From the NCBI GenBank assembly GCA_023251435.1, contig JAHEYU010000005.1:62001-126000 (forward strand): a stretch of 64,000 nt of DNA, given 5' to 3'. Positions 2,089 through 59,746 of the stretch are shown piece after piece (position 1 is the first letter of the stretch; the number at the start of each line of letters is the position of its first letter). The notes beneath the pieces were generated by a model. The model did not search any database. It was not told the origin of the DNA and was given only the letters and a program-made list of their open reading frames with translations. The stretch is from Bacteroidota bacterium (GTDB lineage: Bacteria > Bacteroidota > Bacteroidia > Bacteroidales > Prolixibacteraceae). The translations under genes were made by a program, and so were the position numbers.

Positions 2089-3837
2089 ATGACAGCAAAT
2101 AATGATGTTTTAAACATGGTAAAAGCCAAGGCAGCAGAATGGTTAAGCGAATTGTATGATGCTAAGACGCGTGCTGAAGTTCAAAGGCTTTTAGACAACG
2201 AAGATCCGACAGAATTGATCGACTCGTTTTACCGCGATCTGGAATTCGGAACGGGCGGTTTGCGCGGCATCATGGGCGTGGGAACCAACCGAATGAACAT
2301 TTATACGGCAGGCGCCGCTACTCAGGGATTAAGTAATTATTTAAAAAAAGTATTTGCCCATCTTCCTGAAATTAAAGTTGTAATTGGTCACGATTGCCGC
2401 AACAACAGTCGTTTATTTTCTGAATCGAGTGCCGAAATTTTTGCTGCAAATGGTATAAAAGCATATCTGTTCGACGATTTGCGCCCAACTCCTGAAATTT
2501 CATTTGCTGTGCGCGAACTGGGCTGCCAAAGCGGAATTATACTTACAGCTTCACACAACCCGAAAGAATACAACGGCTACAAAGCTTATTGGGACGATGG
2601 TTCGCAGATTGTTGCCCCGCACGATGAAAATATTATTGACGAGGTGTTGAAAGTAAAAGTTGCCGACATCAAATTCAAAGGTGATAAAAGTTTAATTACC
2701 ATATTGGGAGCTGAAATGGACAAGCTTTTCCTCGAAAAAGTGAAAACCGTTTCCATTTCGCCTGAAGTTGTCCAAAAACACAAAGATTTAAAAATAGTGT
2801 ACACGCCAATTCATGGAACCGGAGTTCGCATGATTCCTGCTGCTTTGCGGGCATTTGGTTTTACAAACATATTTAATGTTCCTGAACAGGATGTTGTAGA
2901 TGGAAACTTTCCAACTGTAGTTTCGCCCAATCCTGAAGAAACCGCAGCGATGGAAATGGCGATAGCCAAAGCTGTTGAAGTTGATGCAGATTTGGTTCTG
3001 GCTTCTGATCCTGATGGAGACCGTCTTGGTGTTGCCGTTAAAAACGATAAAGGAAAATTCGTTATCCTGAACGGTAACCAAACAGCTTTGGTGTTTATTT
3101 ATTACATCATCAGCAAACGCAAGGAAAGTGGCAAATTAGCGGGCAATGAGTTTGTCGTGAAAACCATTGTGACCACCGAGTTGATTGCTAAAATTGCTGA
3201 AAAAAACGGAGTCGATTTTTATGATGTTTTTACCGGCTTCAAATACATCGCCGAAGTAATCCGCGATTTGGAAGGCCAGAAAGTTTACATCGGCGGTGGC
3301 GAAGAAAGTTTCGGATTTATGCCTGCCGATTTTGTACGCGATAAAGACGCTGTTTCATCGTGTGCGCTGATGGCCGAAATTGTGGCCTGGGCGAAAGATC
3401 AGGGCAAATCGTTGTACGAAATGTTGCTCGATATTTATGTGCAATATGGTTTCTCTCGCGAAAAACTGAAATCTGTTGTGCGCAAAGGAAAAGCAGGAGC
3501 CGAGGAAATTCAGCTTATGATGGTTAATTTCCGCACCAATCCACCAAAAGTTTTGGGTGGCTCGAAACTGAAAATCGTGAAGGATTACGAAACCCTGATT
3601 GCAAAGAATGTACTTTCAGGAGAAGAAACGGCGATCGATCAGAAAACCACCTCGAATGTATTGCAGTTCTTCACCGAAGACGGAACAAAAATATCTGTGC
3701 GACCATCGGGAACTGAACCAAAAATAAAATTCTATTGCGAGGTGGCCGGTGAACTTGCCAGCCGGGCTGACTACGATGCTGTTGCAGCAAAAGCTGACGA
3801 AAAAATTGATGCTATTTTGAAAGAACTTGACCTGTAA
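2089..3837 (+). CDS. Phosphoglucomutase/phosphomannomutase (alpha-D-phosphohexomutase)
   Basis: This enzyme interconverts hexose-6-phosphate and hexose-1-phosphate; here it would feed glucose-1-phosphate to RmlA. The 582-residue protein carries the four family signatures: TASHNP with phosphoserine at Ser155, the metal loop DPDGDRLG, the sugar-binding GGGEESFGF, and the phosphate-binding RPSGTEPKIKFY near the C-terminus. Length fits the larger PgcA-type mutases (about 570-600). It follows rmlD by 2 bases. The stop codon TAA (3835-3837) is the first three bases of a heptad repeat array. Confidence 0.95.
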   Translation: MTANNDVLNMVKAKAAEWLSELYDAKTRAEVQRLLDNEDPTELIDSFYRDLEFGTGGLRGIMGVGTNRMNIYTAGAATQGLSNYLKKVFAHLPEIKVVIGHDCRNNSRLFSESSAEIFAANGIKAYLFDDLRPTPEISFAVRELGCQSGIILTASHNPKEYNGYKAYWDDGSQIVAPHDENIIDEVLKVKVADIKFKGDKSLITILGAEMDKLFLEKVKTVSISPEVVQKHKDLKIVYTPIHGTGVRMIPAALRAFGFTNIFNVPEQDVVDGNFPTVVSPNPEETAAMEMAIAKAVEVDADLVLASDPDGDRLGVAVKNDKGKFVILNGNQTALVFIYYIISKRKESGKLAGNEFVVKTIVTTELIAKIAEKNGVDFYDVFTGFKYIAEVIRDLEGQKVYIGGGEESFGFMPADFVRDKDAVSSCALMAEIVAWAKDQGKSLYEMLLDIYVQYGFSREKLKSVVRKGKAGAEEIQLMMVNFRTNPPKVLGGSKLKIVKDYETLIAKNVLSGEETAIDQKTTSNVLQFFTEDGTKISVRPSGTEPKIKFYCEVAGELASRADYDAVAAKADEKIDAILKELDL

Positions 3838-3869
3838 GTTTCAAGTTCCAAGTTCCAGGTTTCAAGTTA
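3835..3869. repeat. Heptad repeat array, CAAGTTC type
   Basis: Five consecutive 7-bp units at 3835, 3842, 3849, 3856 and 3863: two exact CAAGTTC copies flanked by variants such as CAGGTTT and CAAGTTA. The first unit includes the stop codon of the mutase gene. The same unit type recurs near 54701 and 59392. Confidence 0.75.
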
Positions 3870-3903
3870 AAAATCGTTGTTCATCAGTAATGCAAGGAGG
3901 ATC

Positions 3904-3975
3904 AATGACCACAAATGACACGAAGTGAATGACGACTTAATGACTATTGAAAGACAACCAAAGATAATAAATGAC
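3904..3975. repeat. ATGAC-rich irregular repeat
   Basis: AATGAC occurs at 3904 (as CAATGAC), 3914, 3928, 3939 and 3970, and again over the start of the next gene near 3998. Spacing is irregular (10-14 bp, then wider). It resembles the more regular 10-bp arrays at 4897 and 59796. Confidence 0.5.
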
Positions 3976-3998
3976 AAACAATCAATTAACTTAAACCA

Positions 3999-4760: not shown

Positions 4761-4769
4761 TCCAGTCAT

Positions 4770-4806: not shown

Positions 4807-4896
4807 ACATGATAAACCGTTGACTTACCTATTTGATATTTTGTGACAGTCAATTGTGATCATTTGATTGTTATTGTGTTGTATTTTCTTGTCAAC

Positions 4897-4926
4897 TTAA
4901 TGACAATAAAATGACTTTTATGACAT
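4897..4926. repeat. 10-bp periodic ATGAC repeat, three units
   Basis: Units TTAATGACAA (4897), TAAAATGACT (4907) and TTTATGACAT (4917) share ATGAC at exact 10-bp spacing. Confidence 0.6.
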
Positions 4927-4977
4927 CGGGTAATATTGCGGATATTCATTACTTTTTTTAATCGAAGGATCCAACTT

Positions 4978-5019
4978 CTGAACACTGAACATTGACCACT
5001 GCGACTGTAAACTGCAACT
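4978..5019. repeat. Heptad repeat array, CTGAACA type
   Basis: Two exact CTGAACA units (4978, 4985) followed by diverging heptads (TTGACCA, CTGCGAC, TGTAAAC, TGCAACT) still in 7-bp register. Related arrays lie at 21431, 54776, 59453 and 59507. Confidence 0.7.
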
Positions 5020-5111: not shown

Positions 5112-5133
5112 CGCCAATAAAAAAAATAGTCTG

Positions 5134-14403: not shown

Positions 14404-15204
14404 TCATTTCTGATTTGAGGGCAATTGTACTTCCTGAATACACCAGTAATCCCATTGTTTCAGAAATTTCATCTTTCCGGCACCTGAAAAATTCTCTGTT
14501 TGGTTGCTGCCCTCAATCACTCCTGAGAAACTGATGTAGAAACCTACTTCAGCGCTTGTTTCATCAAATTGAATGTCGGTAATATCAACTTTGTTGAGCG
14601 TAAACGATTTAAAAGCCTGCCTGAAATGATCGAACCATTTGTTTTCTTTTGCCTCTTTGGTAAGATCGTTGGTATAAAAGTCGGACTCCTTGTTTAAGAA
14701 TGAGTTGAAAAAATCGGAACAACCGTTCCGGAGATCGTATTCATGGTTCGGATGAAATTCTTCGTAAGTATAGTGGCTGATCCAGCCCTCCATTTGTATG
14801 TTTTCGGTTTCAGTAAAAAAAAGTTCTTCGGTTATAAACCGGTACAATTCGCGGTCTTCCACCTCGCAAAGCGTATCCAGATGTATTTGGTTTTGAGTTA
14901 AGGTATTCATAATCAGATCCAGTTCGGCACTGATTTCAGAGTCGGGAACTGTATCGCTTTTCCTGTATTCCGGCTTTCCAATAAAATCGTAAACCATAAT
15001 TCGCTCTGAATTATGAAATGCTTTTTCAAATTCCATCACATTGTCCAGAAACTGGCTTTCCATTTCGGGGGGCAGGTTCTCATTTTTAAATTCAGCAGGG
15101 AAATCGGCTCCGTATTCGAGCTTCAGCTTCATCCTTTTTATCTCGTTTTCCTGCTTCAGACGTTCCAGTTCGTCTTCAAATTCTTCGGGTTCGTAATCTT
15201 TCAT
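14404..15204 (-). CDS. Hypothetical acidic protein with N-terminal coiled coil
   Basis: I do not recognise a family for this 266-residue protein. Residues 1-32 (YEPEEFEDELERLKQENEI) are highly charged and predict a coiled coil. The rest is acidic and soluble, with no signal peptide or membrane segment. The C-terminal 110 residues (SDFFNSFL, FRQAFKSFTLNKVDITDIQF, GAGKMKFLKQWDYWCIQEVQL) resemble an NTF2/SnoaL-like cone fold in spacing, but that is a guess. It precedes the NIPSNAP gene on the same strand. Confidence 0.7.
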   Translation of the reverse strand: MKDYEPEEFEDELERLKQENEIKRMKLKLEYGADFPAEFKNENLPPEMESQFLDNVMEFEKAFHNSERIMVYDFIGKPEYRKSDTVPDSEISAELDLIMNTLTQNQIHLDTLCEVEDRELYRFITEELFFTETENIQMEGWISHYTYEEFHPNHEYDLRNGCSDFFNSFLNKESDFYTNDLTKEAKENKWFDHFRQAFKSFTLNKVDITDIQFDETSAEVGFYISFSGVIEGSNQTENFSGAGKMKFLKQWDYWCIQEVQLPSNQK

Positions 15205-15407
15205 CGGGCTTTTGTTATATGGAAAGTAATGGCTATAACTCTAATTAATTTCTGTAAGCCAAACTTATACAAAAATCAAGAATGTACGTGTATATGAAGA
15301 TTATAGATTGTAATTATTTGCTTTGATTTTAAACTTATGAACCCAATTAGTGTCCGAATGTTAACTTTAATTAAGGAACTTATTACAGATTGACCAGTTT
15401 TATAAAC

Positions 15408-15415
15408 TATTTTTG
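15408..15415 (+). promoter_or_regulatory. S41 peptidase gene -7 box
   Basis: TATTTTTG, an exact TAnnTTTG match, 76 bases before the ATG at 15491. The rest of the 15205-15490 gap shows nothing further. Confidence 0.6.
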
Positions 15416-15490
15416 CCAATCAATTAATTTTTGGATTCGACATTTGCATGATATTTGAAGTATTGCCGATCCGTTTATAAAAATACTATT

Positions 15491-17104
15491 ATGACATTTA
15501 ATTATAGAATTACAGGTTTTTCAGTTTTGTTGGGGATTATAATGATGGCTGGTGGCAGCGAATTGAAAGCGCAGGACGTTAATAACAGTACGAATAAATT
15601 TGGGCGTTTGCTCCGGTTGATCGACAGTTATTATGTAGATACAGCCAAGGTAGATGATTTGACAGAAAAAGCCATTGTTGAAGTACTTCGCGGACTCGAT
15701 CCACACTCTGTTTATATTTCAAAGGCCGAAGTGGAAAAAATGAATGAACCACTTCAGGGAAATTTTGAAGGGGTGGGCATTTCTTTCAACGTATACCACG
15801 ATACCCTGATGGTTGTAACCACTGTTCCCGGCGGACCTTCCGAAAAAGTCGGAATCAGGGCAGGAGACCGAATTGTAGCGGTTGATACGAAAAATATTGC
15901 TGGCATCGGTCTAAAAAATACTGATGTTTACGATTACCTGCGAGGTAAAAAAGGAACCAGGGTTGATTTGTCGGTTAAACGAAAAGGCGAGCTCACTCTG
16001 CTTGATTTTGCAGTTATTCGCGATAAAATTCCTATTAACAGCCTCGACGCTTCTTATATGCTGAATGACAATACCGGCTATATCAAGCTAAACAAGTTTT
16101 CGGCAACTACCACCAGCGAATTTTTAGACGCGATAAAATCGCTGAAAGCCGGTTCGAAACTTAATAGTCTTGTGCTCGATTTACGTGGAAACGGAGGCGG
16201 TTATCTTTCGGCAGCCACCGAATTGGCGGATCAATTCCTCGATGCCTACAAATTAATTGTATACACAAGCGGTGCTCATGCCGACAAAAAGGAATACACT
16301 TCAACTTCACTTGGCGAATTGGAGCAGGGAAAACTGGTTATTCTCATTGACGAAGGTTCTGCATCGGCCAGCGAAATTGTGGCAGGTGCTGTTCAGGATT
16401 GGGATCGTGCCGTTTTAATTGGTCGCCGTTCGTTTGGTAAAGGTTTGGTACAGCAGCCGTTTCCTTTGACAGATGGATCGATGATCAGGCTTACTACTGC
16501 TCATTATTACACTCCCAGCGGAAGAAATATTCAGAAACCTTATGAGGAAGGCACAGAAGCCTACCAAAAAGACTACCTAAACCGTATGAATAATGGTGAG
16601 TTATTCTCGAAAGACAGCGTTTTACAAAATAAGGCGGAGACATTTCTGACCAAAGCCAGTAAGCGAACTGTTTACGGCGGTGGTGGAGTAATGCCCGACT
16701 TGTTTATTCCGCTCGATACTTCGAAATATTACATTTATTACAACGGTTTGCAGCGTAAAAATTTGGTTTACAACGGAGTTCTCGATATAATGGATTCAAG
16801 TCGCGAAAGCCTGAAACAAAAGTATGCCGACTTTAAAACGTTTGCTGCTAAGTTCGAAGTGTCAGACGAAATGATCAACAAGATAATTGACGCTGGTGAA
16901 AAAGAGGGTGTTAAGAAAGATGATAAAAGCGTTGAATTTGCCCGTCCGTTAATGAAACGCCAGATGAAAGGCCTGATTGCCCGCGACCTCTTTTCGATGA
17001 GTCATTATTTTGAGATCATGAATGTTGAAGACGAAACCATCCAAAAAGCAGTTGAGGTAATTACCCAGAAAGGCACGTACGATAAAATTCTTTCGGGAAA
17101 ATAA
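15491..17104 (+). CDS. C-terminal processing peptidase, S41 family with PDZ domain
   Basis: A 537-residue exported serine protease of the CtpA/Prc type that trims or degrades envelope proteins. Order: signal peptide (GFSVLLGIIMMAGGSELKAQ), N-terminal helical domain, PDZ domain (about 85-175, with GVGISFNV and GGPSEKVGIRAGDRIVAV), S41 catalytic core and a C-terminal helical tail. The Ser-Lys dyad is seen as DEGSASASEIVAGA (Ser292) and RRSFGKGLVQ (Lys317), with the 25-residue spacing of the family. The ATG at 15491 is chosen over a TTG at 15455 because it places the signal peptide at the N-terminus. Confidence 0.94.
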   Translation: MTFNYRITGFSVLLGIIMMAGGSELKAQDVNNSTNKFGRLLRLIDSYYVDTAKVDDLTEKAIVEVLRGLDPHSVYISKAEVEKMNEPLQGNFEGVGISFNVYHDTLMVVTTVPGGPSEKVGIRAGDRIVAVDTKNIAGIGLKNTDVYDYLRGKKGTRVDLSVKRKGELTLLDFAVIRDKIPINSLDASYMLNDNTGYIKLNKFSATTTSEFLDAIKSLKAGSKLNSLVLDLRGNGGGYLSAATELADQFLDAYKLIVYTSGAHADKKEYTSTSLGELEQGKLVILIDEGSASASEIVAGAVQDWDRAVLIGRRSFGKGLVQQPFPLTDGSMIRLTTAHYYTPSGRNIQKPYEEGTEAYQKDYLNRMNNGELFSKDSVLQNKAETFLTKASKRTVYGGGGVMPDLFIPLDTSKYYIYYNGLQRKNLVYNGVLDIMDSSRESLKQKYADFKTFAAKFEVSDEMINKIIDAGEKEGVKKDDKSVEFARPLMKRQMKGLIARDLFSMSHYFEIMNVEDETIQKAVEVITQKGTYDKILSGK

Positions 17105-17155
17105 AAATTTTTGAGCGTGTTATGTTGCGAGTTTCACGGTGCGGGTTCCGAGAAA

Positions 17156-17190
17156 AACCCGTAACCCGTAACCCGCAACCCGTAACTTGA
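17156..17190. repeat. Heptad repeat array, AACCCGT type
   Basis: AACCCGT at 17156 and 17163, AACCCGC at 17170, AACCCGT at 17177, then AACTTGA. A CGGGTT at 17142-17147 can pair with AACCCG 17156-17161 to form a hairpin. It ends 8 bases before the pnuC ATG. Confidence 0.8.
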
Positions 17191-17198
17191 AATTCTAT

Positions 17199-17819
17199 AT
17201 GGAAATAATTATTAAATGGCTTTCAGGAAATTACATTGAGCTCCTGGGAGCCATTTTAGGTATTGCCTACATTTTTTTCTCTATTCGCCAGAATATACTC
17301 ACCTGGCCGGTTGGATTGCTTACTTCAGCGCTTTACGTGTGGGTCTTTTTTGCCTCCAGTCTTTATGCTGAAATGGGACTTCAGATTTACTACCTGTTTA
17401 TAAGTTTTTACGGTTGGTACGAATGGTTGTACGGCAGTTCTTCAGGCAAATCGGAACCGTTAAAAGTGAGTCGTTTAAGCCTTCGTTTGGGCACGATACT
17501 TTTGATAATCAGTCTGGCGCTTTTTGTTTTGTTATGGTATATCCTGAATAATTATACCGATTCGAATGTTCCGATGGCCGATGCACTGGCAACCGCACTT
17601 GGAATTGTTGCAACCTGGATGCTGGCCCGAAAAATTCTGGAACACTGGCTTTTATGGGTTTTTGTTGATATATTTTCGATCGGACTTTTTTTGCACAAAG
17701 AGCTTTATCCTACCGTTATTCTGTTTGTTGTTTACACCATCATGGCAGTTGTCGGGTTTGTTGAATGGAAGAAGGAGCTGGTGGGTGAGGGGTCAATGGA
17801 TCAGTTACCGGGAAAGTAA
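17199..17819 (+). CDS. pnuC: Nicotinamide riboside transporter PnuC
   Basis: PnuC is an inner-membrane facilitator for nicotinamide riboside. The 206-residue protein has about seven hydrophobic segments and the family motifs WPVGLLTSALYVWVFF and YYLFISFYGWYEWLYG. I place the start at ATG 17199; the upstream TTG at 17187 falls inside the end of a heptad repeat. It is followed 8 bases later by an NR-kinase-like gene, giving an uptake-and-trapping pair for NAD salvage. No TPP or other riboswitch is seen upstream. Confidence 0.94.
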   Translation: MEIIIKWLSGNYIELLGAILGIAYIFFSIRQNILTWPVGLLTSALYVWVFFASSLYAEMGLQIYYLFISFYGWYEWLYGSSSGKSEPLKVSRLSLRLGTILLIISLALFVLLWYILNNYTDSNVPMADALATALGIVATWMLARKILEHWLLWVFVDIFSIGLFLHKELYPTVILFVVYTIMAVVGFVEWKKELVGEGSMDQLPGK

Positions 17820-17827
17820 TTACAGAG

Positions 17828-18364
17828 ATGAACAGAGAAAATAAACAAATACGAATTGCTGTTACAGGTCCTGAATCGACCGGTAAAACCACTTTGGCCA
17901 AACAGTTGGCTGAATTTTATAACGGATTGTATATAAGTGAATTTGCGCGCGAATTTGTTGAAACTTTGCCCCGACATTATACTTACGATGATGTTGAAAC
18001 AATTGCATTAAAACAGCTCGAACAATACCAGTCAACCAAATCAGGTTCCGGGCAAATGTTTTTTTTTGATACATGGCTGATTATTACAAAAGTATGGTTT
18101 AATTGGGTATTTCAGCGAACACCCGATTGGCTGGAAAATCAGATTCAGGAATGTAAAATTGACTTATTTCTGCTGTGCCGTCCCGACTTGCCTTGGGAAG
18201 CCGATCCTGTTCGTGAAAACGGAGGTGAGAACCGCTTGAAACTGTTTGAACAATACCGCAACGAGCTGAACCATTATGGCTTTAAGTATGTTGAAATCGG
18301 AGGAAGCGGCAATGCAAGGTTGGAATCGGCAATTGTCGCAATCAATAGTTTGCATCAGGAGTAA
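17828..18364 (+). CDS. NadR-type ribosylnicotinamide kinase-like P-loop ATPase
   Basis: A 178-residue AAA_28-family P-loop protein. Walker A is TGPESTGKTTLAKQLAEFY near residue 12, followed by SEFAREFVE, which matches the kinase domain of NadR. The NadR adenylyltransferase and repressor domains are absent. Paired with PnuC (8-base gap), it probably phosphorylates incoming nicotinamide riboside to NMN, trapping it in the cell. Activity on thiamine or another nucleoside is an alternative. Confidence 0.88.
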   Translation: MNRENKQIRIAVTGPESTGKTTLAKQLAEFYNGLYISEFAREFVETLPRHYTYDDVETIALKQLEQYQSTKSGSGQMFFFDTWLIITKVWFNWVFQRTPDWLENQIQECKIDLFLLCRPDLPWEADPVRENGGENRLKLFEQYRNELNHYGFKYVEIGGSGNARLESAIVAINSLHQE

Positions 18365-18381
18365 AACTTTCAGACTTTTAG

Positions 18382-18412
18382 TTTGATATCACTTTCAAAA
18401 GTGTGATTTTTG
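18382..18412 (+). promoter_or_regulatory. cysE promoter with overlapping hairpin
   Basis: TTTG (18382-18385), a 19-bp spacer and GATTTTTG (18405-18412), one mismatch from TAnnTTTG. The spacer contains an inverted repeat ATCAC (18388-18392) / GTGAT (18403-18407) followed by Ts, which may also terminate the preceding NR-kinase transcript or act as an operator. Confidence 0.55.
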
Positions 18413-18435
18413 TCACTAATTAATAATCAGTACAA

Positions 18436-19365
18436 ATGCTTTCAGAAAAGAATTTTGAACACAAAATGAGCCGTGCTGTCGACCAATTGGCCGATCCAAA
18501 ATCATACAGCCTGGTTTGCCACGAGCATCGCATGGGCGAACCTTTACCTTCGATCGAAAAACTGGGCAAAATAGTTGGACTAATCCGCGAAATTCTGTTT
18601 CCGGGCTACTTCGGAAATACCAGTTTGCGGGCCAATACCATCAAGCATTACGTGGGTGTTAACATCGACGAATTGTTCGAATTATTGTCGGAGCAGATTT
18701 TGGCCGGACTATGCTTTACCTGCCAGAATCCTGAAATGGTTGATATGCAGGAGCGTTCGAAGTTTGCACAGGGCCTTGCTTCCGATCTTATTTCGTTTCT
18801 TCCTGAAATCAGGAGGCTAATGGTTACTGACGTTGAAGCTGCCTATTTGGGCGATCCGGCGGCCAATAGCAGGAGCGAAGTTATATTCTGCTATCCGGCT
18901 ATCCGGGCAATTATCAATCACCGCATCGGACATCAGTTGCTGCAATTGGGCGTGCCGCTTATTCCGCGCATTATTTCAGAAATGGGACACTCCGAAACAG
19001 GTATCGATATTCATCCGGGAGCACAGATTGGTGAATCATTTACGATTGATCATGGTACCGGGGTTGTAATCGGGTCAACCTGTATTATTGGTAACAATGT
19101 GAAACTCTATCAGGGAGTTACGCTCGGCGCCAAGAGTTTTCCGCTTGATGCCGATGGCAATCCTATCAAGGGAATTCCACGCCATCCGATAGTGGAGGAC
19201 AACGTGATCATTTACGCGCAGGCAACTATTCTGGGTCGTATCAGGATTGGAGCGAATTCTGTGATTGGTGGAAACGTATGGGTGACCAACAGCTTGCCAC
19301 CGAACACCAAGCTTGTTCAGTCTAAAGCCAAAGAAACCGATTACAGCGACGGTGCCGGAATTTAA
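18436..19365 (+). CDS. cysE: Serine O-acetyltransferase
   Basis: CysE acetylates L-serine with acetyl-CoA, the committing step of cysteine synthesis. The 309-residue protein has a long helical N-terminal domain, as in EpsC/plant-like forms, and a left-handed beta-helix of hexapeptide repeats: GHSETGIDIHPGAQIGESF with active-site His, DHGTGVVIGSTCIIGNNV and LGRIRIGANSVIGGNVWV. It has its own promoter at 18382-18412, and the next gene follows after 23 bases. No cysK is adjacent. Confidence 0.94.
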   Translation: MLSEKNFEHKMSRAVDQLADPKSYSLVCHEHRMGEPLPSIEKLGKIVGLIREILFPGYFGNTSLRANTIKHYVGVNIDELFELLSEQILAGLCFTCQNPEMVDMQERSKFAQGLASDLISFLPEIRRLMVTDVEAAYLGDPAANSRSEVIFCYPAIRAIINHRIGHQLLQLGVPLIPRIISEMGHSETGIDIHPGAQIGESFTIDHGTGVVIGSTCIIGNNVKLYQGVTLGAKSFPLDADGNPIKGIPRHPIVEDNVIIYAQATILGRIRIGANSVIGGNVWVTNSLPPNTKLVQSKAKETDYSDGAGI

Positions 19366-19388
19366 TAAGTCTTTAAAAACAATATATC

Positions 19389-20549
19389 TTGAAAAAACAA
19401 ACATACACCGCCACTACGCTGGCCGGATTAGAAGAAATACTTGCACAGGAGTTGATTGAAATTGGTGCCGATGAGGTGCAGATAGGACGTCGCTCGGTGT
19501 ATTTTAGTGGTGATTTAAAGTTACTTTACAAAGCGAATTACTGTTTGCGCAGCGCTTTGCGGATTTTACTGCCCATCGATTCGTACAAGATATTTTCGGC
19601 TGACGATTTGTATCAGCGCGGCAAAAACTTTAAATGGGAAGAGTTGTTTGGCTGCGACCAGACTTTTGCTATTCAGAGTACCGTTTTTACCGATCTTTTT
19701 AATAATTCGATGTTCGCGTCGCTCAAGCTGAAAGATGCCATTGTCGATCGTTTTCGCTATAAATTTGGCGAAAGGCCATCGGTCGATTCAAAGAATCCGG
19801 ATATACGGATTAACCTGCACATCAGCAACGAGTATTGTACCATTTCGCTCGATAGCAGCGGAGAATCGCTGCACAAGCGTGCTTACAGGCTCGACCAGAA
19901 CGAAGCGCCAATGAGTGAAGTGCTGGCTGCCGGTTTAATAAGGCTTTCGGAATGGGACCGTAAAAGCGATTTTGTTGATCCAATGTGTGGATCGGGCACA
20001 ATCGCCATCGAAGCGGCCATGTTGGCCAATGGAATTTATCCGGGTAGCATTCGGAAAGACTTTTCTTTTCGCAACTGGCGCAATTTTAATCCTGAATTGT
20101 TCAAACAAGTGGAAGAAGAAGTTCAGCCGGTGGGCGTTCAGCCTGTGAAAATTTCGGCTTCGGATATCTCTCGCCGCAACATCGATATTGCCTATAAAAA
20201 TGCCGAAGCTGCTGGCGTCTTGAAATTCATTGATTTTAAAATATCCGATTTTAAAGTGTTGGAACCAGCTTCCGATAAGCCTTTCCTGTTGTTTAATCCA
20301 CCTTACGGTGAACGTTTGACTCCGGATGATACCAATTTTTATGCGATGATTGGGGAACGGCTGAAACATCATTATTCCGATGCAACTGTCTGGATCATCA
20401 GTACGCCTCAATGCCTGAAATCAATAGGATTGCGACCTTCCCGTAAAATTTCAATTCTGAACGGTTCGCTGGAATGTAGTTTCAGGAAATACGAATTGTA
20501 TTCAGGTTCTAAGAAAATCTCTTCTTTGGGCATTGGTGCAGATAAATGA
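19389..20549 (+). CDS. THUMP-domain class I SAM-dependent RNA methyltransferase (RlmL N-domain/YpsC type)
   Basis: A 386-residue methyltransferase. Residues about 1-155 include the THUMP RNA-binding domain; the Rossmann-like catalytic domain follows, with SAM motif DPMCGSGTIAIEAAM near 200 and the N-methylation motif NPPYGERL near 302. It corresponds to the m2G2445-type half of RlmL and to YpsC proteins, so 23S rRNA is the likely target. The start is TTG (19389), giving MKKQTYTATTLAGLEEILAQ; no ATG fits better. It lies 23 bases after cysE. Confidence 0.9.
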   Translation: MKKQTYTATTLAGLEEILAQELIEIGADEVQIGRRSVYFSGDLKLLYKANYCLRSALRILLPIDSYKIFSADDLYQRGKNFKWEELFGCDQTFAIQSTVFTDLFNNSMFASLKLKDAIVDRFRYKFGERPSVDSKNPDIRINLHISNEYCTISLDSSGESLHKRAYRLDQNEAPMSEVLAAGLIRLSEWDRKSDFVDPMCGSGTIAIEAAMLANGIYPGSIRKDFSFRNWRNFNPELFKQVEEEVQPVGVQPVKISASDISRRNIDIAYKNAEAAGVLKFIDFKISDFKVLEPASDKPFLLFNPPYGERLTPDDTNFYAMIGERLKHHYSDATVWIISTPQCLKSIGLRPSRKISILNGSLECSFRKYELYSGSKKISSLGIGADK

Positions 20550-20573
20550 TGATAATAGATTGGATTGTTACAA

Positions 20574-20618
20574 GTTTCGGGTTACGTGTTGCGACCTGAA
20601 ACCCGAAACCCGTAACTT
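20574..20618. repeat. Heptad repeat with 10-bp perfect inverted repeat, GAAACCC type
   Basis: GTTTCGGGTT (20574-20583) and AACCCGAAAC (20600-20609) form a perfect stem with a 16-base loop. GAAACCC repeats at 20598 and 20605, followed by GTAACTT, in 7-bp register. It sits between convergent genes and ends 6 bases from the aroE stop, so it may serve as a terminator. Confidence 0.75.
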
Positions 20619-20623
20619 CTCCC

Positions 20624-21373
20624 TCAGCTATTCCAAATCTCCCAGGCCCTGATAGCTTGTAAATGGAGCATTTCCAATCCATTTTTTGTTTTTGCACCCC
20701 GCGCTTTACCATTTTTCAGAAACAGAGTTTCTTCCGGATTGTAAACCAGATCGAACAAAACATGATCGGATGTAATTGATTGATAAGGAATTTCCGGACA
20801 ATTATCCACATTCGGAAATGTTCCGATTGGAGTTGCATGGATGATAATCAGGTAATCTTTCAAAAGTTCGTCAGTTATCTGGCTGTATCTTATCTCGCTG
20901 GCAAACAACTGATCTTCGATGGAAGCTGATAAATATTCAATATTTAGTTTGTCGAGAATATGTTTGATGGCTTTTGAAGCCCCGCCGGTTCCTAAAATCA
21001 GCGCTTTTTTGTGCTTTTCTTCCAACATCGGGCGCAGCGAATTTTCGAATCCGTAAATGTCGGTATTGAATCCTTTTAAAAATCGTTTGCCATCTTTAAA
21101 AGTAATTTTAACTGTATTTACCGCTCCAATCTGCGCTGCTTCAGCATCAATTTCATCTAAGAAAGGCATGATTTGCTGTTTGTACGGAATGGTGCAGTTT
21201 AGTCCGAAAATGTTTTTATCCTGATCAAAAATACCGGGAAATTCATCAATGCTGTCCAGTTCGAAATTCACATATTCATGATCTGCAAGGTTCTCCTGCT
21301 CAAACTTTTCAGCGAAAAATTTTCTGGAAAACGAATATCCCAGCCTGTGTCCAATTAGTCCGAATGTTTTCAT
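20624..21373 (-). CDS. aroE: Shikimate dehydrogenase
   Basis: AroE reduces 3-dehydroshikimate to shikimate with NADPH in aromatic amino acid synthesis. The 249-residue protein begins FGLIGHRLGYSFSRKFF, whose Ser residues bind shikimate, then NCTIPYK with the catalytic Lys, AQIGAVNTV, the nucleotide loop LGTGGASKAI, and GLEMLHLQA at the C-terminus. It is slightly shorter than the 270-residue norm, as common in Bacteroidota. It lies downstream of the ABC-F-like gene's convergent partner region and appears monocistronic. Confidence 0.95.
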   Translation of the reverse strand: MKTFGLIGHRLGYSFSRKFFAEKFEQENLADHEYVNFELDSIDEFPGIFDQDKNIFGLNCTIPYKQQIMPFLDEIDAEAAQIGAVNTVKITFKDGKRFLKGFNTDIYGFENSLRPMLEEKHKKALILGTGGASKAIKHILDKLNIEYLSASIEDQLFASEIRYSQITDELLKDYLIIIHATPIGTFPNVDNCPEIPYQSITSDHVLFDLVYNPEETLFLKNGKARGAKTKNGLEMLHLQAIRAWEIWNS

Positions 21374-21430
21374 TTGTATTCATTTTATAAATTTCAAATA
21401 GGGGCGTTTTTGTTTCAGGTTTCGTTGTCA

Positions 21431-21458
21431 ACTGCGACTGAACACTGAACTCTGAACA
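21431..21458. repeat. Heptad repeat array, CTGAACA type
   Basis: CTGAACA at 21438, CTGAACT at 21445 and CTGAACA at 21452, preceded by ACTGCGA at 21431, all in 7-bp register. It ends 8 bases from the stop codon of the ABC-F gene. Confidence 0.75.
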
Positions 21459-21466
21459 CTAATGCG

Positions 21467-23329
21467 TTAAGCCAGTTCGCTTAATTCGAGCCAGCGCATT
21501 TCTTTTTCTTCCAGTAAATCGGAAACCGTTCCGAACCGTATTGATTTTTCGTGCAATTGGTCATTGCTTAAAGTTCCTGAATTCAATTCATCGCTTATTT
21601 GTGTCTTTTCATTTTCGAGCGATTCAATATCATTTTCGAGTTGCTCCAATTCCTTTTTTTCATTGAAAGTCAACTTTCGTTCCTTTGCTTTTTCCGGTTT
21701 TGCCAGTTCTTTCGCATCTGGTTTTTTTAACTTTTTTGCCAGTTCTTCATCGTCAATTTGCTTGTTTCTCCAGATAGTATAGCTGCCCGGAAAATCTTTA
21801 ATATTGCCCTCGCCATCGAATACAAACAGGTGATCGACAATTTTATCCATGAAATAACGGTCGTGCGAAACAATGATTACACAGCCCTGAAATACGCGCA
21901 AATACTCTTCCAGAACCGATAGAGTCATAATATCCAGATCATTGGTTGGCTCATCCAGAATCAGGAAATTCGGATTTGTCATCAGGATTGTGCAAAGATA
22001 CAATCGCCGTTTTTCGCCTCCTGAAAGACGTTCAACAAAAGAATACTGAGTGTCAGGAGGGAAAAGGAATGTGGTAAGTAATTGTGATGCAGTAAGTTTT
22101 CGGCCATCTTCGAAATTGATAACTTCGGCGATTTTCTGAACAACATCAATCACTTTGTCGCCGGGATTAAATTCAATGCCCGTTTGCTGGTAGTAGCCAA
22201 AACGAATGGTTTGCCCGATTTCAACCGTTCCTTTATCAGCTTGAAGATTTCCGGTAACAATGTTCAGGAAGGTCGATTTTCCGGTGCCGTTTTTACCTAC
22301 AATTCCTACTTTTTCGAAACGCTGGAATTTATACGAGAAATCCTTTATCAGGCAAAGCGAGTCGTACGATTTACTAATATTGTCGAGATCAAGAATTTTA
22401 TTTCCGATCCGCGACGAATTCATGCTTAGTTCAATATTGTTCTCGTTCAGGTTTTGTGACGCTTTTACCTTCAGATCTTCAACGCGTTCCATTCTGTATT
22501 TCGATTTGTGCCCGCGTGCCTGGGGCATTCGTCTCGACCATTCTAATTCGGTACGAAGCAGATTTTTTGCCCTTTCAACCACCGCAGCGGTCGAGTCCAT
22601 CCGATCCTGACGTTTTTCAAGAAAATAGGAATAATTACCGCGATAACGGTAAATTGTATTTCCCTCCATTTCCAGAATTTCGTTGCAAACCCGATCGAGA
22701 AAATAGCGATCGTGCGTAACCATGAACAGCGTAACTTTTGTTTTTTCAAGGTAGTTTTCCAGCCATTCAATCATTTCCAGATCGAGGTGGTTGGTAGGCT
22801 CATCAAGCATCAGCAAATCAGGCTCATTAATCAGTGCATTTGCCAATGCCACACGCTTTTTCTGTCCTCCTGAAAGTTCTGAAATCCGTTGGTCGTAATT
22901 GGTGACTTTAAGCTGGGTAAGTATCTGTTTTACTTTTACTTCATAGTCCCAGGCATGATGCCGTTCCATCAACTCGGTGTATTTTGTGATGTCATCCTTG
23001 TGATTCAGTCGCAATGCCAGTTCGAAATTTCGGATGACTTCAACCATCTCGTCTCCCGACTGAAATACAGCTTCGAAAACCGTAAGATTTTCATCCAATT
23101 CAGGAATTTGTTTGAGATATGCAATTTTAATATCGCCGGTTTTGGTTATTTGTCCCGATTCCGGAGTGTCGTTTCCGGCAAGCAATTCCATGAGGGTGGT
23201 TTTTCCTGTACCATTGCGGGCAATGAGTGCTATCTTTTGATGCTGAAAAATGGTGAAGGAAATATTTTCGAACAATAACTGTTCGCCAAATCGCTTCGAT
23301 AAATTTTCAGCCTGTAAAAACGGAGTCAT
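21467..23329 (-). CDS. ABC-F family ATPase (Uup type)
   Basis: A 620-residue soluble protein with two ABC cassettes and no transmembrane domain, acting on the ribosome or DNA. First cassette: Walker A ARNGTGKTT, signature LSGGQKKRVALA, Walker B LLMLDEPTNHLD. Second: GKNGTGKST, LSGGEKRRLYLC, FLILDEPTNDLD. The linker holds the P-site tRNA interaction motif region, and the C-terminus (KERKLTFNEKKELEQLEND) is a coiled coil typical of Uup. The start at 23329 is chosen because a -7 box lies at 23348-23341 on this strand, leaving only a leader of about 6 bases and excluding the longer frame beginning at 23362. Confidence 0.93.
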   Translation of the reverse strand: MTPFLQAENLSKRFGEQLLFENISFTIFQHQKIALIARNGTGKTTLMELLAGNDTPESGQITKTGDIKIAYLKQIPELDENLTVFEAVFQSGDEMVEVIRNFELALRLNHKDDITKYTELMERHHAWDYEVKVKQILTQLKVTNYDQRISELSGGQKKRVALANALINEPDLLMLDEPTNHLDLEMIEWLENYLEKTKVTLFMVTHDRYFLDRVCNEILEMEGNTIYRYRGNYSYFLEKRQDRMDSTAAVVERAKNLLRTELEWSRRMPQARGHKSKYRMERVEDLKVKASQNLNENNIELSMNSSRIGNKILDLDNISKSYDSLCLIKDFSYKFQRFEKVGIVGKNGTGKSTFLNIVTGNLQADKGTVEIGQTIRFGYYQQTGIEFNPGDKVIDVVQKIAEVINFEDGRKLTASQLLTTFLFPPDTQYSFVERLSGGEKRRLYLCTILMTNPNFLILDEPTNDLDIMTLSVLEEYLRVFQGCVIIVSHDRYFMDKIVDHLFVFDGEGNIKDFPGSYTIWRNKQIDDEELAKKLKKPDAKELAKPEKAKERKLTFNEKKELEQLENDIESLENEKTQISDELNSGTLSNDQLHEKSIRFGTVSDLLEEKEMRWLELSELA

Positions 23330-23340
23330 ATTTTTTTCTG

Positions 23341-23348
23341 CAAAAGTA
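23341..23348 (-). promoter_or_regulatory. ABC-F gene -7 box
   Basis: Read on the minus strand this is TACTTTTG, an exact TAnnTTTG match, only 11 bases before the ATG. The predicted mRNA would be nearly leaderless. Confidence 0.65.
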
Positions 23349-23408
23349 ACATTTTCGGGCAACCTGTCGAATACACTTTTTAACTGGAATTAGAACCCTT
23401 TTTTATTT

Positions 23409-23416
23409 TAAGTTTG
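23409..23416 (+). promoter_or_regulatory. nth -7 box
   Basis: TAAGTTTG, an exact TAnnTTTG match. Its TTG is in frame with nth and could be mistaken for a start codon at 23414. Confidence 0.65.
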
Positions 23417-23440
23417 GAATCACAAAATATTAAAAGTGAG

Positions 23441-24091
23441 ATGAACAAAAAAGAACGATTTGAACGTGTAATCAGTTATTTTCAGAAAGAGATGCCCATT
23501 GCCGAAACAGAGCTGGAATACAAAAATCCTTATGAATTGCTGGTTGCGGTAATTCTTTCGGCCCAATGTACCGACAAACGTGTTAATTTGATTACTCCTG
23601 ATTTATTAAAACGTTTTCCAACACCTGAAGCGATGGCTGCAGTTGATTCTGCCGAGGTTTTTGATTATATCAGATCGTGTTCGTATCCCAATAATAAAGC
23701 AAAGCATCTGGTTGGCATGGCTCGTATGCTGGTAAACGATTTTGATGGAAAGGTTCCCGATGACATAGATGAATTGCAAAAACTACCTGGAGTCGGACGA
23801 AAAACGGCCAATGTAATCGCTTCGGTGGTTTACAACAAGCCTGCAATGGCTGTCGATACGCACGTTTTCAGGGTTTCTGCCCGCATTGGATTGACTGTTG
23901 GTTCTAAAACTCCTTTGGAAACAGAAAAGCAACTGGTCGAATACTTTCCTGAAGAATTGCTCCCACTGGCGCATCACTGGCTCATTTTGCACGGACGATA
24001 CACTTGTCTGGCCCGGTCGCCAAAATGTGAAAAGTGTGGATTAACCGCTGTTTGTGAATATTTTCAGGAAGAACAACAAAAACAAAAATGA
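23441..24091 (+). CDS. nth: Endonuclease III
   Basis: Nth is a bifunctional DNA glycosylase/AP lyase for oxidised pyrimidines. The 216-residue protein has LLVAVILSAQCTDKRVN, the helix-hairpin-helix LQKLPGVGRKTANVI with catalytic Lys121, VDTHVFRVSARIGL with catalytic Asp139, and the C-terminal [4Fe-4S] cluster cysteines in CLARSPKCEKCGLTAVC. The ATG at 23441 follows the -7 box at 23409 and is preferred over TTG 23414. It is divergent from the ABC-F gene. Confidence 0.96.
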   Translation: MNKKERFERVISYFQKEMPIAETELEYKNPYELLVAVILSAQCTDKRVNLITPDLLKRFPTPEAMAAVDSAEVFDYIRSCSYPNNKAKHLVGMARMLVNDFDGKVPDDIDELQKLPGVGRKTANVIASVVYNKPAMAVDTHVFRVSARIGLTVGSKTPLETEKQLVEYFPEELLPLAHHWLILHGRYTCLARSPKCEKCGLTAVCEYFQEEQQKQK

Positions 24092-24222
24092 GCAATTATC
24101 AAAATCAGTCAGATATGTTCTCATAAAACCATCTAACCTGTTTGATAATCAACTAAATATTAAATGTTTGCCATTGCTGCGAAATTAATTTTGTTAATTT
24201 TTTTATATTTTGCCAAACTTTG

Positions 24223-24230
24223 TACATTTG
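24223..24230 (+). promoter_or_regulatory. Ferredoxin gene -7 box
   Basis: TACATTTG, an exact TAnnTTTG match, 30 bases before the ferredoxin ATG. Confidence 0.7.
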
Positions 24231-24260
24231 TGACATTCAAAAAACTAAAAAAATAGAGTT

Positions 24261-24431
24261 ATGGCTTATAGAATTTCAGAAGAATGTATTGCTTGCGGTA
24301 CATGCATCGATGAATGTCCTGTTGAAGCAATTTCTGAGGGAGATATCTACAAAATTGATGCAGACCTTTGCACCGATTGTGGATCGTGTGCCGAAGTTTG
24401 TCCGGTTGATGCAATTTCGGTTGCAGAGTAA
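24261..24431 (+). CDS. 2[4Fe-4S] ferredoxin
   Basis: A 56-residue clostridial-type ferredoxin, a low-potential electron carrier. It has two CxxCxxCxxxCP motifs, CIACGTCIDECP and CTDCGSCAEVCP, in pseudo-twofold arrangement, with MAYRISEE at the N-terminus. Such ferredoxins serve pyruvate:ferredoxin oxidoreductase and related enzymes in anaerobic metabolism. It has its own promoter (24223) and a strong terminator (24454), so it is monocistronic and probably highly expressed. It is short enough to be missed by length-filtered gene calls. Confidence 0.95.
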   Translation: MAYRISEECIACGTCIDECPVEAISEGDIYKIDADLCTDCGSCAEVCPVDAISVAE

Positions 24432-24453
24432 TTTCCGCTAGAAATAAAGCTAC

Positions 24454-24493
24454 AAAGAAGCTGATCCTAAAAAGGGTCAGCTTCTTTTTTTTT
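24454..24493 (+). terminator. Rho-independent terminator after ferredoxin
   Basis: Stem AAAGAAGCTGATCC (24454-24467) with GGGTCAGCTTCTTT (24474-24487), one wobble pair, and nine Ts at 24485-24493. Confidence 0.92.
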
Positions 24494-24556
24494 GCCCCAG
24501 CTTGCAACTATGTGGTCTGATTTTTGTCAATAAAAGCAGATTCTAATACTGTTACC

Positions 24557-54694: not shown

Positions 54695-54790
54695 AAATAG
54701 TTCCAAATATTAAGTTCCAAGATTAATCATTATTTGTCATTGATTGTCAGTCGAATGACCACTCCTGCACACTTTGACTGATCACTGTTT
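54695..54790. repeat. Mixed heptad repeat region between ccoG and ccoH
   Basis: Contains TTCCAA units (54701, 54715), a GTCATTGATTGTCA stretch (ATGAC type) and ACTTTG-ACTGATC-ACTG units (54771-54787) of the CTGAACA type. The ccoG stop codon (54782-54784) lies inside the last unit. Confidence 0.6.
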
Positions 54791-56827: not shown

Positions 56828-57012
56828 AATTTCTGGTTTTTGCAATTTGTATTCAGTTTTATCTTTTTGTGTGACTACATTTTTGAAGACCAATTCCATC
56901 CCGTCCGAAAGTGGTCAAAGCATTGTTCTGCTTTATGCCGCGGACGATTTACATCTTCTATTATCTCTATCTACAAATATTTCGCACCTCTGGTGCCTTT
57001 TCCCTTTTCTCC

Positions 57013-57047
57013 ATGCCCCACGCTCTTTGCCCTATGCTCCACGCTTT
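57013..57047. repeat. Heptad repeat array, TGCTCCACGC type
   Basis: Five units in 7-bp register at 57013 (ATGCCCC), 57020 (ACGCTCT), 57027 (TTGCCCT), 57034 (ATGCTCC) and 57041 (ACGCTTT), alternating two unit types. The ccoQ stop codon (57032-57034) and its last codons are inside it. Confidence 0.7.
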
Positions 57048-57223
57048 TCATTGCCGGTGGTCACCGAGTCCTCCAAAGGCATATTACTGAACTCATCAAT
57101 TTCTTCTTTCTTCATCCTGAATGCATTGATGGTAACGAAAATGAAGAAAGTGAAGAAAATAAAAAAGCCTATCAGTGCATAAATTTCAACATGAAATATA
57201 TTGCGTAATGTATCACCTACCAT
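57032..57223 (-). CDS. ccoQ: cbb3-type oxidase subunit CcoQ
   Basis: A 63-residue protein with one helix (IYALIGFFIFFTFFIFVTI) and a charged cytoplasmic tail (RMKKEEIDEFSNMPLED), matching CcoQ/FixQ. It is 3 bases downstream of ccoNO. Its last codons (EKRGA) and stop arise from a heptad repeat. Confidence 0.85.
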   Translation of the reverse strand: MVGDTLRNIFHVEIYALIGFFIFFTFFIFVTINAFRMKKEEIDEFSNMPLEDSVTTGNEKRGA

Positions 57224-57226
57224 AGC

Positions 57227-59368: not shown

Positions 59369-59391
59369 AGAGTATTAGTTTTTTAATAATT

Positions 59392-59473
59392 CCAAGTTCC
59401 AAATTTCAAGTTTCAGGCTCTGTTTAAAGTTCAACGTTTAAAGTTGCTCCAAACTGAACACTGATCACCGAGA
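59392..59473. repeat. Heptad repeats between ccoS and ccoNO
   Basis: CCAAGTT-type units at 59392, 59399, 59406 and 59413, then weaker heptads, then ACTGAAC (59453), ACTGATC (59460) and ACCGAGA (59467). Two unit types are joined in one array. The ccoS stop codon (59465-59467) lies inside. Confidence 0.75.
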
Positions 59474-59746
59474 CTGCCTACTTCTTTTCCAGAACCTTTT
59501 TTCTATCAACTGCGACTGATCACTGCGACTTTTTTTTTTTTCGTTTTTTTCTGCCAACTGTGACTGATCACTGCGACTCTTCTCTTTTTCTGTATCACTC
59601 TTCACCTCCGGATCGTCAAACAACATCCTGACCGATGGCGTGTAGGTATCTTCGTACTGGCCATTTTTTACCGACCAGATGAAAGCAATCAGGAATGCAC
59701 CTGCCATAATGATTGCTGCAAATACCAATACGAATACTACTGACAT
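59465..59746 (-). CDS. ccoS: cbb3 maturation protein CcoS with repeat-derived tail
   Basis: CcoS is a small membrane protein needed for cofactor insertion in cbb3 oxidase. Residues 1-48 are canonical: one helix (VFVLVFAAIIMAGAFLIAF), WSVKNGQYEDTYTPSVRML and FDD. The remaining ~43 residues are a basic tail with two 16-residue repeats, each starting KSRSDQSQL, that are the translation of an intergenic heptad repeat. Typical CcoS is about 50-70 residues. The tail also includes a 12-base poly-A coding run. Gap to ccoNO: 96 bases of repeats. Confidence 0.9.
   Translation of the reverse strand: MSVVFVLVFAAIIMAGAFLIAFIWSVKNGQYEDTYTPSVRMLFDDPEVKSDTEKEKSRSDQSQLAEKNEKKKSRSDQSQLIEKRFWKRSRQSR
59507..59578. 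repeat. 48-bp direct repeat inside ccoS, ACTGATC heptad type
   Basis: A 24-base element at 59507-59530 and 59555-59578, one mismatch, exactly 48 bp apart, each internally in 7-bp register (ACTGCG, ACTGATC, ACTGCGA). On the minus strand it encodes SRSDQSQL. Confidence 0.85.

What the first reader, a model, noticed from the sequence alone, without database searches (positions are those of the whole stretch)
3835..59580. Dispersed intergenic arrays with exact 7-bp periodicity but several unrelated unit sequences
Arrays at 3835, 4978, 17156, 20598, 21431, 57013, 59392, 59453 and 59507 are all in strict 7-bp register, yet use different units (CAAGTTC, CTGAACA, AACCCGT, GAAACCC, TGCTCCACGC-type). 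One array (59392-59473) joins two unit types. They sit close to gene 3' ends, and the stop codons of the phosphoglucomutase, ccoG, ccoQ and ccoS genes lie inside or at the edge of arrays. The shared period with different units suggests one mechanism (heptad slippage or templated synthesis) and not one selfish sequence. Heptanucleotide tandem repeats are known from filamentous cyanobacteria, but I know of no description of this multi-unit family here.
Basis: partly seen in the sequence, partly recalled or inferred. Interest (0 to 1): 0.75.

Follow-up and report, generated by a model that had tools for sequence, protein, structure and literature searches.

The report
Seven-base repeats capping bacterial gene ends
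Short arrays of seven-base DNA repeats sit at the ends of genes in this bacterium and many relatives and mostly point the same way relative to the gene whatever their sequence; they resemble repeats reported in Xanthomonas and Nostoc but form a wider and so far unexplained class.

Summary
The arrays are real and the lag-7 excess is genome-wide: 34 intergenic hits at lag 7 in 1.09 Mb of this genome, against 1-9 at lags that are not multiples of 7. Six of the nine listed arrays are in strict 7-bp register. The units are only partly 'unrelated': CAAGTTC, AACCCGT and GAAACCC are one degenerate family, AACnYGn.

At gene ends the G-richer strand mostly runs outward: G-form follows stop codons, C-form precedes starts. 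By G/C count 41 of 60 arrays fit, 14 oppose, 5 tie; Bacteroidota loci outside the genus give 18, 5 and 1. Facing AACnYGn arrays are G-left/C-right in 22 of 22 pairs. Units without GGG also fit. Arrays avoid divergent spacers (1 of 60). Two of seven positions are free to vary in the best-sampled family. In several compared spacers, relatives carry other arrays or none.

Closest known: the Xanthomonas/Nostoc heptamers (PMC4692102), with nearly the same layout but discussed as G-quadruplexes, which do not obviously cover units without GGG. I rate this a new variant of a known kind: dispersed heptad arrays with fast turnover. How they are made is unresolved.

The parts
3836..3868 (+). AACnYGn-family array, G-form (AAGTTTC/AAGTTCC units), overlapping and following the phosphoglucomutase stop codon (3835-3837)
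4978..5001 (+). ACTGnnn-family array, C-form, upstream of the GMP synthase gene (ORF from 5074)
17124..17193 (.). Heptad-armed inverted repeat (G-form left arm, C-form right arm with AACCCGT units) filling the spacer between an S41 peptidase gene and an NMN transporter gene; kept in 7 aligned species; RNA fold z -3.6
20567..20616 (.). Heptad-armed inverted repeat in the convergent spacer between an RlmL-like methyltransferase gene and aroE; the orthologous spacer is 9 bp and empty in L319 and L321; RNA fold z -3.7
21412..21424 (-). Short AACnYGn-like piece (CGAAACCTGAAAC on the gene strand) on the start side of aroE, below the array threshold
21430..21460 (-). ACTGnnn-family array; on the gene strand G-form, 6 bp after the stop of an ABC-F-like ATPase gene
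54776..54787 (-). Single ACTGnnn word (GACTGATCACTG) that contains the ccoG stop codon (54782-54784); not an array by threshold
57004..57045 (-). CATGCCC-type array (period 21 = 3 x 7, weak at lag 7) containing the ccoQ stop codon (57032-57034)
59390..59415 (-). AACnYGn-family array, C-form on the gene strand, 21 bp upstream of the ccoNO start
59423..59445 (-). TTTAAAGTTCAACGTTTAAAGTT piece next to the previous array; one 7-bp unit shorter than in L099 and L101
59452..59476 (-). ACTGnnn-family words containing the ccoS stop codon (59465-59467)
59497..59590 (-). Two copies of a 48-bp repeat, each holding AACTG(C/T)GACTGATCACTGCGACT, inside the ccoS reading frame so that they would be translated as its C-terminal tail; the word is absent from L099 and single in L098

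Best explanation
These are members of a phylum-wide class of mostly short, degenerate heptad arrays that occupy gene ends in transcribed spacers. In the best-sampled families a core of 4-5 bases per 7 is conserved and the other positions are free. The G-richer strand mostly runs 5'->3' away from the gene, so that two facing arrays form a G-left/C-right imperfect hairpin. They spread within a genome by copying of short stretches (shared strings up to 26 bp, without flanks) from one array to another, gain and lose whole 7-bp units, are replaced quickly between species, and survive where no promoter is damaged (downstream of stop codons, between codirectional or convergent genes). Shown here: period, gene-end location, polarity, depletion from divergent spacers, degeneracy by phase, turnover in the compared spacers, lack of shared flanks. 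Inferred: the copying, and the role of slippage. Not shown: any function. The hairpin is probably a by-product of two facing arrays, since the arms do not co-vary.
For: Intergenic lag-7 excess at lags that are not multiples of 7: own 34 against 1-9; G010 16 against 0-4; G012 9 against 0-5; 79 loci outside the genus 28 against 0-8; coding DNA has no such peak. Polarity by family in 841 tandem spacers: AACnYGn G-form nearer the stop in 18 of 20, C-form nearer the start in 23 of 27, order G then C in 11 of 11 spacers with both; ACTG family 17 of 19, 3 of 4 and 2 of 2 (families defined on the same sample). Opposing AACnnGn chains within 70 bp: 22 of 22 G-then-C, 0 reversed (includes pattern-fetched loci and at least two orthologous pairs). 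By G/C count: 41 of 60 arrays for, 14 against, 5 ties; within 30 bp of a gene end, with GGG or CCC 10 for and 2 against, without 24 for, 6 against, 5 ties; per spacer, 34 of 52 fit throughout, 10 oppose, 4 are mixed, 4 tie. Divergent spacers: 1 of 60 arrays although they hold 48.4 of 202.7 kb, p 2.4e-6. Within 10 bp of a gene end: 37 of 60 against 25.3 +/- 3.4 for random placement. Phase-locked degeneracy in 98 arrays not fetched by pattern: 937 against 735 +/- 21, 0 of 500. Turnover: 9-bp empty spacers in L319 and L321 against AACnYGn hairpins in L304, L306, L307, L309 and, by eye, other heptad hairpins in L312 and L313; different sets in own, G015 and G011 at L133 3902-4003. Short copying: 11 pairs of 72 own arrays share 18 bp or more, against 3.8 (max 10 of 40 shuffles) when unit order is shuffled; G010 4 against 0.6 (max 3); 10 of the 11 lie in different spacers; arrays with 40-bp flanks have no non-self match of 38 bp or more, 0 of 72 queries in the own sample.
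Against: Exceptions to the polarity are not rare (14 of 60), and small families are weak: AAAGTTT type 5 of 8 G-forms near the stop, CATGCCC type 2 of 4. The excess of shared strings is modest: at 21 bp or more the own count is 2 against 0.75 (shuffles reach 4), and the mean shared length is not above that of units redealt within type (5.44 against 5.53). Unit-sized indels were seen at only two sites, and the indel spectrum in aligned cco spacers is not centred on 7. At the spacer kept in seven species (17105-17198) AAC and GTT columns vary less than the rest (7 of 27 against 21 of 39, Fisher p 0.04; the C of AAC varies in 4 of 5 units), a weak hint of constraint that dispersal does not predict. 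Part of the polarity upstream of starts is general: array-free spacers also have C over G there (skew -0.11 to -0.12), while after stops they do not have G over C (-0.03 to -0.05). No copying enzyme is identified. Gene ends rest on my own ORF caller.
Confidence: 0.45

Rival explanations
1. Functional RNA hairpins: the arrays are kept because the transcript folds between cistrons or after the stop, for mRNA stability, ribosome stalling or translational coupling, as is reported for E. coli REPs within 15 nt of a stop codon.
For: Position in transcribed spacers and close to gene ends. Two of four folded window spacers fold far better than shuffles: 17105-17197 z -3.6 and 20550-20623 z -3.7. One hairpin is kept in 7 aligned species with 92.8% of cells paired. 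REP effect as described in PMC12306157 (passages).
Against: Arms are not more complementary within an element than between elements: genus, n = 17, -27.6 against -29.5 kcal/mol, p 0.95; all 21, p 0.11 (arms split at the midpoint). No covariation beyond shuffles in the conserved hairpin (3 pairs with double changes against 2.1; 155 of 500 shuffles reach it). The other two folded spacers have z -0.2 and -2.0. A relative can have an almost empty spacer (L288, 10 bp). No terminator-like site was listed in the two hairpin spacers.
Confidence: 0.2
2. Conventional short mobile palindromes of the REP/BIME or MITE kind, moved by a Y1 (RAYT-like) transposase.
For: Y1_Tnp genes in 23 of 23 genus genomes. 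Dispersed families, nearly empty orthologous spacers, and REP-like palindromes (GTAGAGACGCAC type) in the same ccoS-ccoN spacer of other species.
Against: 7 of 30 fetched Y1_Tnp loci have an AACnYGn double unit within about 1.5 kb, no more than random windows of that size (516 of 2000 own, 508 of 2000 G012, 611 of 2000 G010). Of the two flanks printed, L340 carries its own CCCCGTTAGGGG palindromes. No conserved ends or flanks: 0 of 72.
Confidence: 0.12
3. Binding sites: a protein reads 4-5 bases in every 7 along tandem heptads (RNA or DNA), and selection keeps the core while the other positions drift.
For: Within-array mismatch by phase for 25 AACnYGn arrays: 0.03.03.20.01.05.40; for 7 GAAGnCn arrays.03.10, 0.03.30.03.41. 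AAC and GTT columns vary less than the rest in the conserved hairpin (7 of 27 against 21 of 39). PMC4679880 discusses heptamer binding by a cold-shock protein (passage).
Against: Different families coexist in one genome and replace each other in the same spacer, so one reader would need many specificities. No candidate protein was tested here.
Confidence: 0.15

Closest known systems
GGGAATC / (GGGANTN)n heptamer repeats of Xanthomonas and GGGGA(C/T)T of Nostoc (Rehm et al. 2015, PMC4692102; passages and sections 10 and 16 read)
   Same: Heptamers with two free positions; many inverted pairs (70 and 75 cases in two Xanthomonas genomes); mostly intergenic; nearer the upstream ORF (average 28 nt); under-represented between divergent ORFs; preference for the coding strand downstream of ORFs and the non-coding strand upstream; length and sequence differ between close species.
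   Different: There one G-tract unit type per organism, studied as G-quadruplexes. Here several families per genome, 45 of 60 arrays without GGG or CCC, with the same polarity on balance; a different phylum; the same spacer occupied by unrelated units in different species.
TAACTGA heptamer repeats of Beggiatoaceae, Cyanobacteria and five Bacteroidetes (MacGregor 2015, PMC4679880; abstract, passages and sections 8, 12, 24 read)
   Same: Period 7, intergenic, other heptamer repeats noted in the same spacers of some Bacteroidetes, close relatives lacking the arrays.
   Different: One exact unit whose near variants are rarely repeated in the main genome, mostly just upstream of starts; 169 direct sets and one indirect repeat there, and no polarity rule at both gene ends in what I read.
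REP sequences of E. coli and other bacteria (RepRanger, PMC12306157; passages read)
   Same: Extragenic, palindromic; a fraction lies within 15 nt of stop codons.
   Different: Not described there as heptad arrays in the passages I saw; here no shared flanks and no association with Y1_Tnp genes.
Tandem heptanucleotides of the cyanobacterium Calothrix (cited in PMC4692102, passage; original not read)
   Same: Three different heptanucleotides in one genome.
   Different: Calothrix arrays were not compared here.

Membership tests
Xanthomonas/Nostoc-type heptamer repeats | 7-bp unit, mainly intergenic | tested here: met
   lag profiles
Xanthomonas/Nostoc-type heptamer repeats | Two free positions per heptamer | tested here: met
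   AACnYGn (25 arrays), GAAGnCn (7) and CCAATnn (3); the ACTG family (10) is spread over about four positions
Xanthomonas/Nostoc-type heptamer repeats | Inverted pairs, G strand downstream of ORFs, few between divergent ORFs | tested here: met
   14 of 60 arrays oppose the polarity
Xanthomonas/Nostoc-type heptamer repeats | G-tracts (three or more G) able to form quadruplexes | tested here: not met
   45 of 60 arrays have no GGG or CCC; of these 28 fit the polarity, 12 oppose, 5 tie; two-G tracts were not tested
TAACTGA repeats (MacGregor) | Exact TAACTGA unit | tested here: not met
   no window array listed has this unit
REP/RAYT system | Fixed palindrome with conserved ends | tested here: not met
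   0 of 72 own arrays with 40-bp flanks have a non-self match of 38 bp or more
REP/RAYT system | Copies beside a Y1_Tnp gene more often than elsewhere | tested here: not met
   7 of 30 loci against 25-31% of random windows
Intrinsic terminator | G+C stem followed by a T run | tested here: not met
   none of the 11 sites listed in 15000-24500 lies in the two hairpin spacers; other spacers not scanned
RNA structure under selection | Compensatory changes in the stem | tested here: inconclusive
   one hairpin, 7 sequences, 3 pairs with double changes against 2.1 in shuffles

The most novel reading that the evidence does not exclude
Telomere-like end caps. An enzyme extends DNA 3' ends at gene borders with heptads from a short degenerate template, as telomerase does, and capped ends are then joined. 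This would explain why the G-rich strand tends to run 3'-outward from the gene, why two caps meet as G-left/C-right (the layout of fused telomeres, recalled), why the arms are independent of each other, why two positions per unit are degenerate, why unit sequences differ, and why arrays abut gene borders.
Probability: 0.07. Interest if true: 0.95.

Novelty: new variant of a known kind. Interest (0 to 1): 0.6.

Why it matters
In the papers I read, bacterial heptamer repeats are treated one sequence at a time and discussed as polymerase slippage, quadruplexes or binding sites for one regulator. Here families with different units share period, gene-end location and, on balance, outward-G polarity across Bacteroidota. 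If the rules hold in larger sets, quadruplex formation cannot be the general reason, and the old question of why bacterial repeats favour seven bases becomes testable. The arrays also rewrite spacers, and the predicted C-terminal tail of CcoS, quickly between species.

Tried and rejected
Intrinsic terminators: no site listed in the two hairpin spacers. RAYT/REP mobilisation: no association above background. Arm co-evolution: not found. Three-G quadruplexes as the general cause: arrays without GGG fit the polarity 28 to 12. General strand skew as the cause of the polarity: no G excess after stops in array-free spacers, but a C excess before starts. Generic hairpin bias: non-heptad spacer hairpins with perfect arms are G-left 62, C-left 75, equal 32; the same search caught only two heptad hairpins, one each way, because heptad arms are imperfect. 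Larger mobile element carrying the arrays: no shared flanks. My first listing of the 17105-17198 orthologues (spacer A-B) used queries out of frame by one base; it was redone and only one search is used for that spacer. One search repeated the phase test on a set that included pattern-fetched loci; only one search is used.
Full report
What the window is. The window is G000:C17:62001-126000 of a 5.73-Mb, 148-contig genome. The nearest named relative by the CcoNO query is an uncultured Prolixibacteraceae MAG at 92% identity. I used 1.09 Mb of this genome (window, L085-L096, L127-L146, L175-L194), 0.4 Mb each of two genus relatives, G012 (one contig) and G010, 80 named CcoNO loci, most of them Bacteroidota by title with a few Ignavibacteria, Neomarinimicrobiota and Calditrichota, and genus orthologues.

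Is it real. In the window, lag-7 segments exceed Markov controls (5 against 0.25 at threshold 10). In the own sample, intergenic hits are 34 at lag 7, 25 at 14 and 22 at 21, against 1-9 at the other lags from 4 to 30; coding DNA has 5 at lag 7. G010 has 16 at lag 7 against 0-4 at non-multiples of 7, and G012 is weaker (9 against 0-5). In the 79 loci outside the genus (L006-L084), 28 at lag 7 against 0-8 at non-multiples.

Units. The commonest unit is AACnYGn. The pattern (AACYYGN)x3-AAC with up to one mismatch has 180 overlapping matches in the own genome against none for the reversed control, and is present in 23 of 23 genus genomes, where the control gives 0-10. The exact pattern is present in 45 of 296 sampled phylum genomes and 24 of 140 genera, own included. 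Reversed-control hits are 0 in most of these but high in a few (G117, G126, G288), which may carry another heptad family; I did not follow them. A 23-bp ACTG-family word with up to two mismatches is found in 17 of 41 genomes, own included, 16 of them in the genus, with no control hits. Other types seen in the genus: CATGCCC, GAAGnCn, CCAATnn, ATTAACG and TTCCTTA.

Degeneracy is locked to phase. In 98 arrays that were not fetched by pattern, mismatches to the array's own consensus cluster in particular phases (937 against 735 +/- 21, 0 of 500 simulations). For 25 AACnYGn arrays the rates by phase are 0.03.03.20.01.05.40. Neutral mutation after slippage would be even across phases.

Polarity. 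Read along the gene, the G-form (NCRnGTT) follows stops and the C-form (AACnYGn) precedes starts: 18 of 20 and 23 of 27 tandem spacers, and 11 of 11 when both occur in one spacer; the ACTG family gives 17 of 19, 3 of 4 and 2 of 2; the AAAGTTT type 5 of 8 and 9 of 10; the CATGCCC type 2 of 4 and 6 of 6. The family patterns were drawn up on the same sample. Opposing AACnnGn chains within 70 bp are G-then-C in 22 of 22 (341 arrays, including pattern-fetched loci; at least two of the pairs are orthologues of others). Of 98 unbiased arrays, 24 have an inverted partner within 70 bp (about 1.6 expected); the left arm has G over C in 22 of 24 rows, which I count as 15 of 17 distinct palindromes, including GAGTTAA-type units in Larkinella (L052, L066). 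Non-heptad spacer hairpins with perfect arms show no such bias (62 G-left, 75 C-left, 32 equal). By G/C count all 60 arrays in genus spacers are 41 for, 14 against, 5 ties; per spacer 34 of 52 fit throughout, 10 oppose, 4 are mixed and 4 tie. The 79 outside loci give 24 arrays in 15 loci, all Bacteroidota by title: 18 for, 5 against, 1 tie; some of these loci also contributed to the hairpin count, so this is not a fully independent test. Array-free spacers have no G excess after stops but do have a C excess before starts, so the stop side is the stronger evidence. A palindrome of this layout obeys the rule at both ends whichever way it lies. By eye, single arms of different families at the two ends of one spacer (59369-59464, 21374-21466, L133 1752-1940) obey it too.

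Where they sit. Of 60 arrays 49 are in tandem, 10 in convergent and 1 in divergent spacers (p 2.4e-6 by spacer length). They lie close to gene ends more often than random placement gives (37 of 60 within 10 bp against 25.3 +/- 3.4), a moderate effect in short spacers.

Turnover and inheritance. In the convergent spacer at 20550-20623 the relatives behind L319 and L321 have 9 bp, while L304 (own), L306, L307 and L309 carry AACnYGn hairpins and, by eye, L313 a TTCCTTA-type and L312 an AAAAGG-type hairpin. In L133 3902-4003 own, G015 and G011 carry different sets. By contrast the 17105-17198 hairpin is kept in seven aligned species with 92-94-bp spacers, while L288 has 10 bp there. Exact one-unit differences occur at the 59423 region (own against L099 and L101) and at L133 1761 (own against G011).

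Mechanism. Hairpin function is not favoured: arms are no more complementary within than between elements, the conserved hairpin shows no covariation above shuffles, and two of four folded spacers have z -0.2 and -2.0. A mobile element with fixed ends or a Y1_Tnp link is not favoured. Shared strings of 18-26 bp between arrays, 10 of 11 pairs in different spacers, exceed shuffled unit order (11 against 3.8, max 10; G010 4 against 0.6, max 3), which points weakly to copying of short stretches. AAC and GTT columns of the conserved hairpin vary less than the rest (7 of 27 against 21 of 39, p 0.04), so a reader of the core is kept as a rival.

Known work. PMC4692102 (passages, sections 10 and 16) describes Xanthomonas and Nostoc heptamers with nearly the same layout and studies them as quadruplexes. 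PMC4679880 (abstract, passages, sections 8, 12, 24) describes TAACTGA arrays and mentions other heptamers in Bacteroidetes spacers. The slippage explanation for a 7-nt unit is attributed in these papers to earlier work by Mrazek and others, which I did not read. Library searches listed no description of AACnYGn arrays or of this polarity for heptads without G-tracts; I saw listings only for most of those papers, and the library lacks most subscription journals.

Verdict. The claim of one mechanism behind many units is strengthened by the polarity rule, while slippage as that mechanism is only weakly supported. I rate it a new variant of a known kind.

Noticed in passing
window 59795-59905, 3901-3990, 4890-4925; also L098, L282, L290, L310, L318, L320: A second repeat class: TGACAAN / GTCATT words spaced about 10-11 bp, often as inverted halves, sharing spacers with the heptad arrays or standing in their place in some species.
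   Followed up: partly
L100, L102, L104, L110 (ccoS-ccoN spacer): The same spacer holds a REP-like palindrome of the GTAGAGACGCAC...GTGCGTCTCTAC type in other species; spacer type does not follow CcoNO identity (L100 98% and L102 95% share it).
   Followed up: no
window 59465-59746 (ccoS): The C-terminal part of the CcoS reading frame runs through repeat arrays and differs between species.
   Followed up: no
L340 1000-1520: A Y1_Tnp (RAYT-like) gene flanked by many CCCCGTTAGGGG-type palindromes, a likely REP/RAYT pair of its own.
   Followed up: no
G117, G126, G288: High counts for the reversed control pattern (CAANGYY heptads), suggesting other heptad families in those phylum members.
   Followed up: no
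L052, L066 (Larkinella), L010, L064, L061: Long or inverted heptad arrays with other units (GAGTTAA, TCTTACC, ACTARTC, AGTCRAA) in other Bacteroidota.
   Followed up: partly
G015:C39 against L133 3902-4003: In G015 this spacer is shorter and holds only CAATNAN heptads before the start codon.
   Followed up: partly
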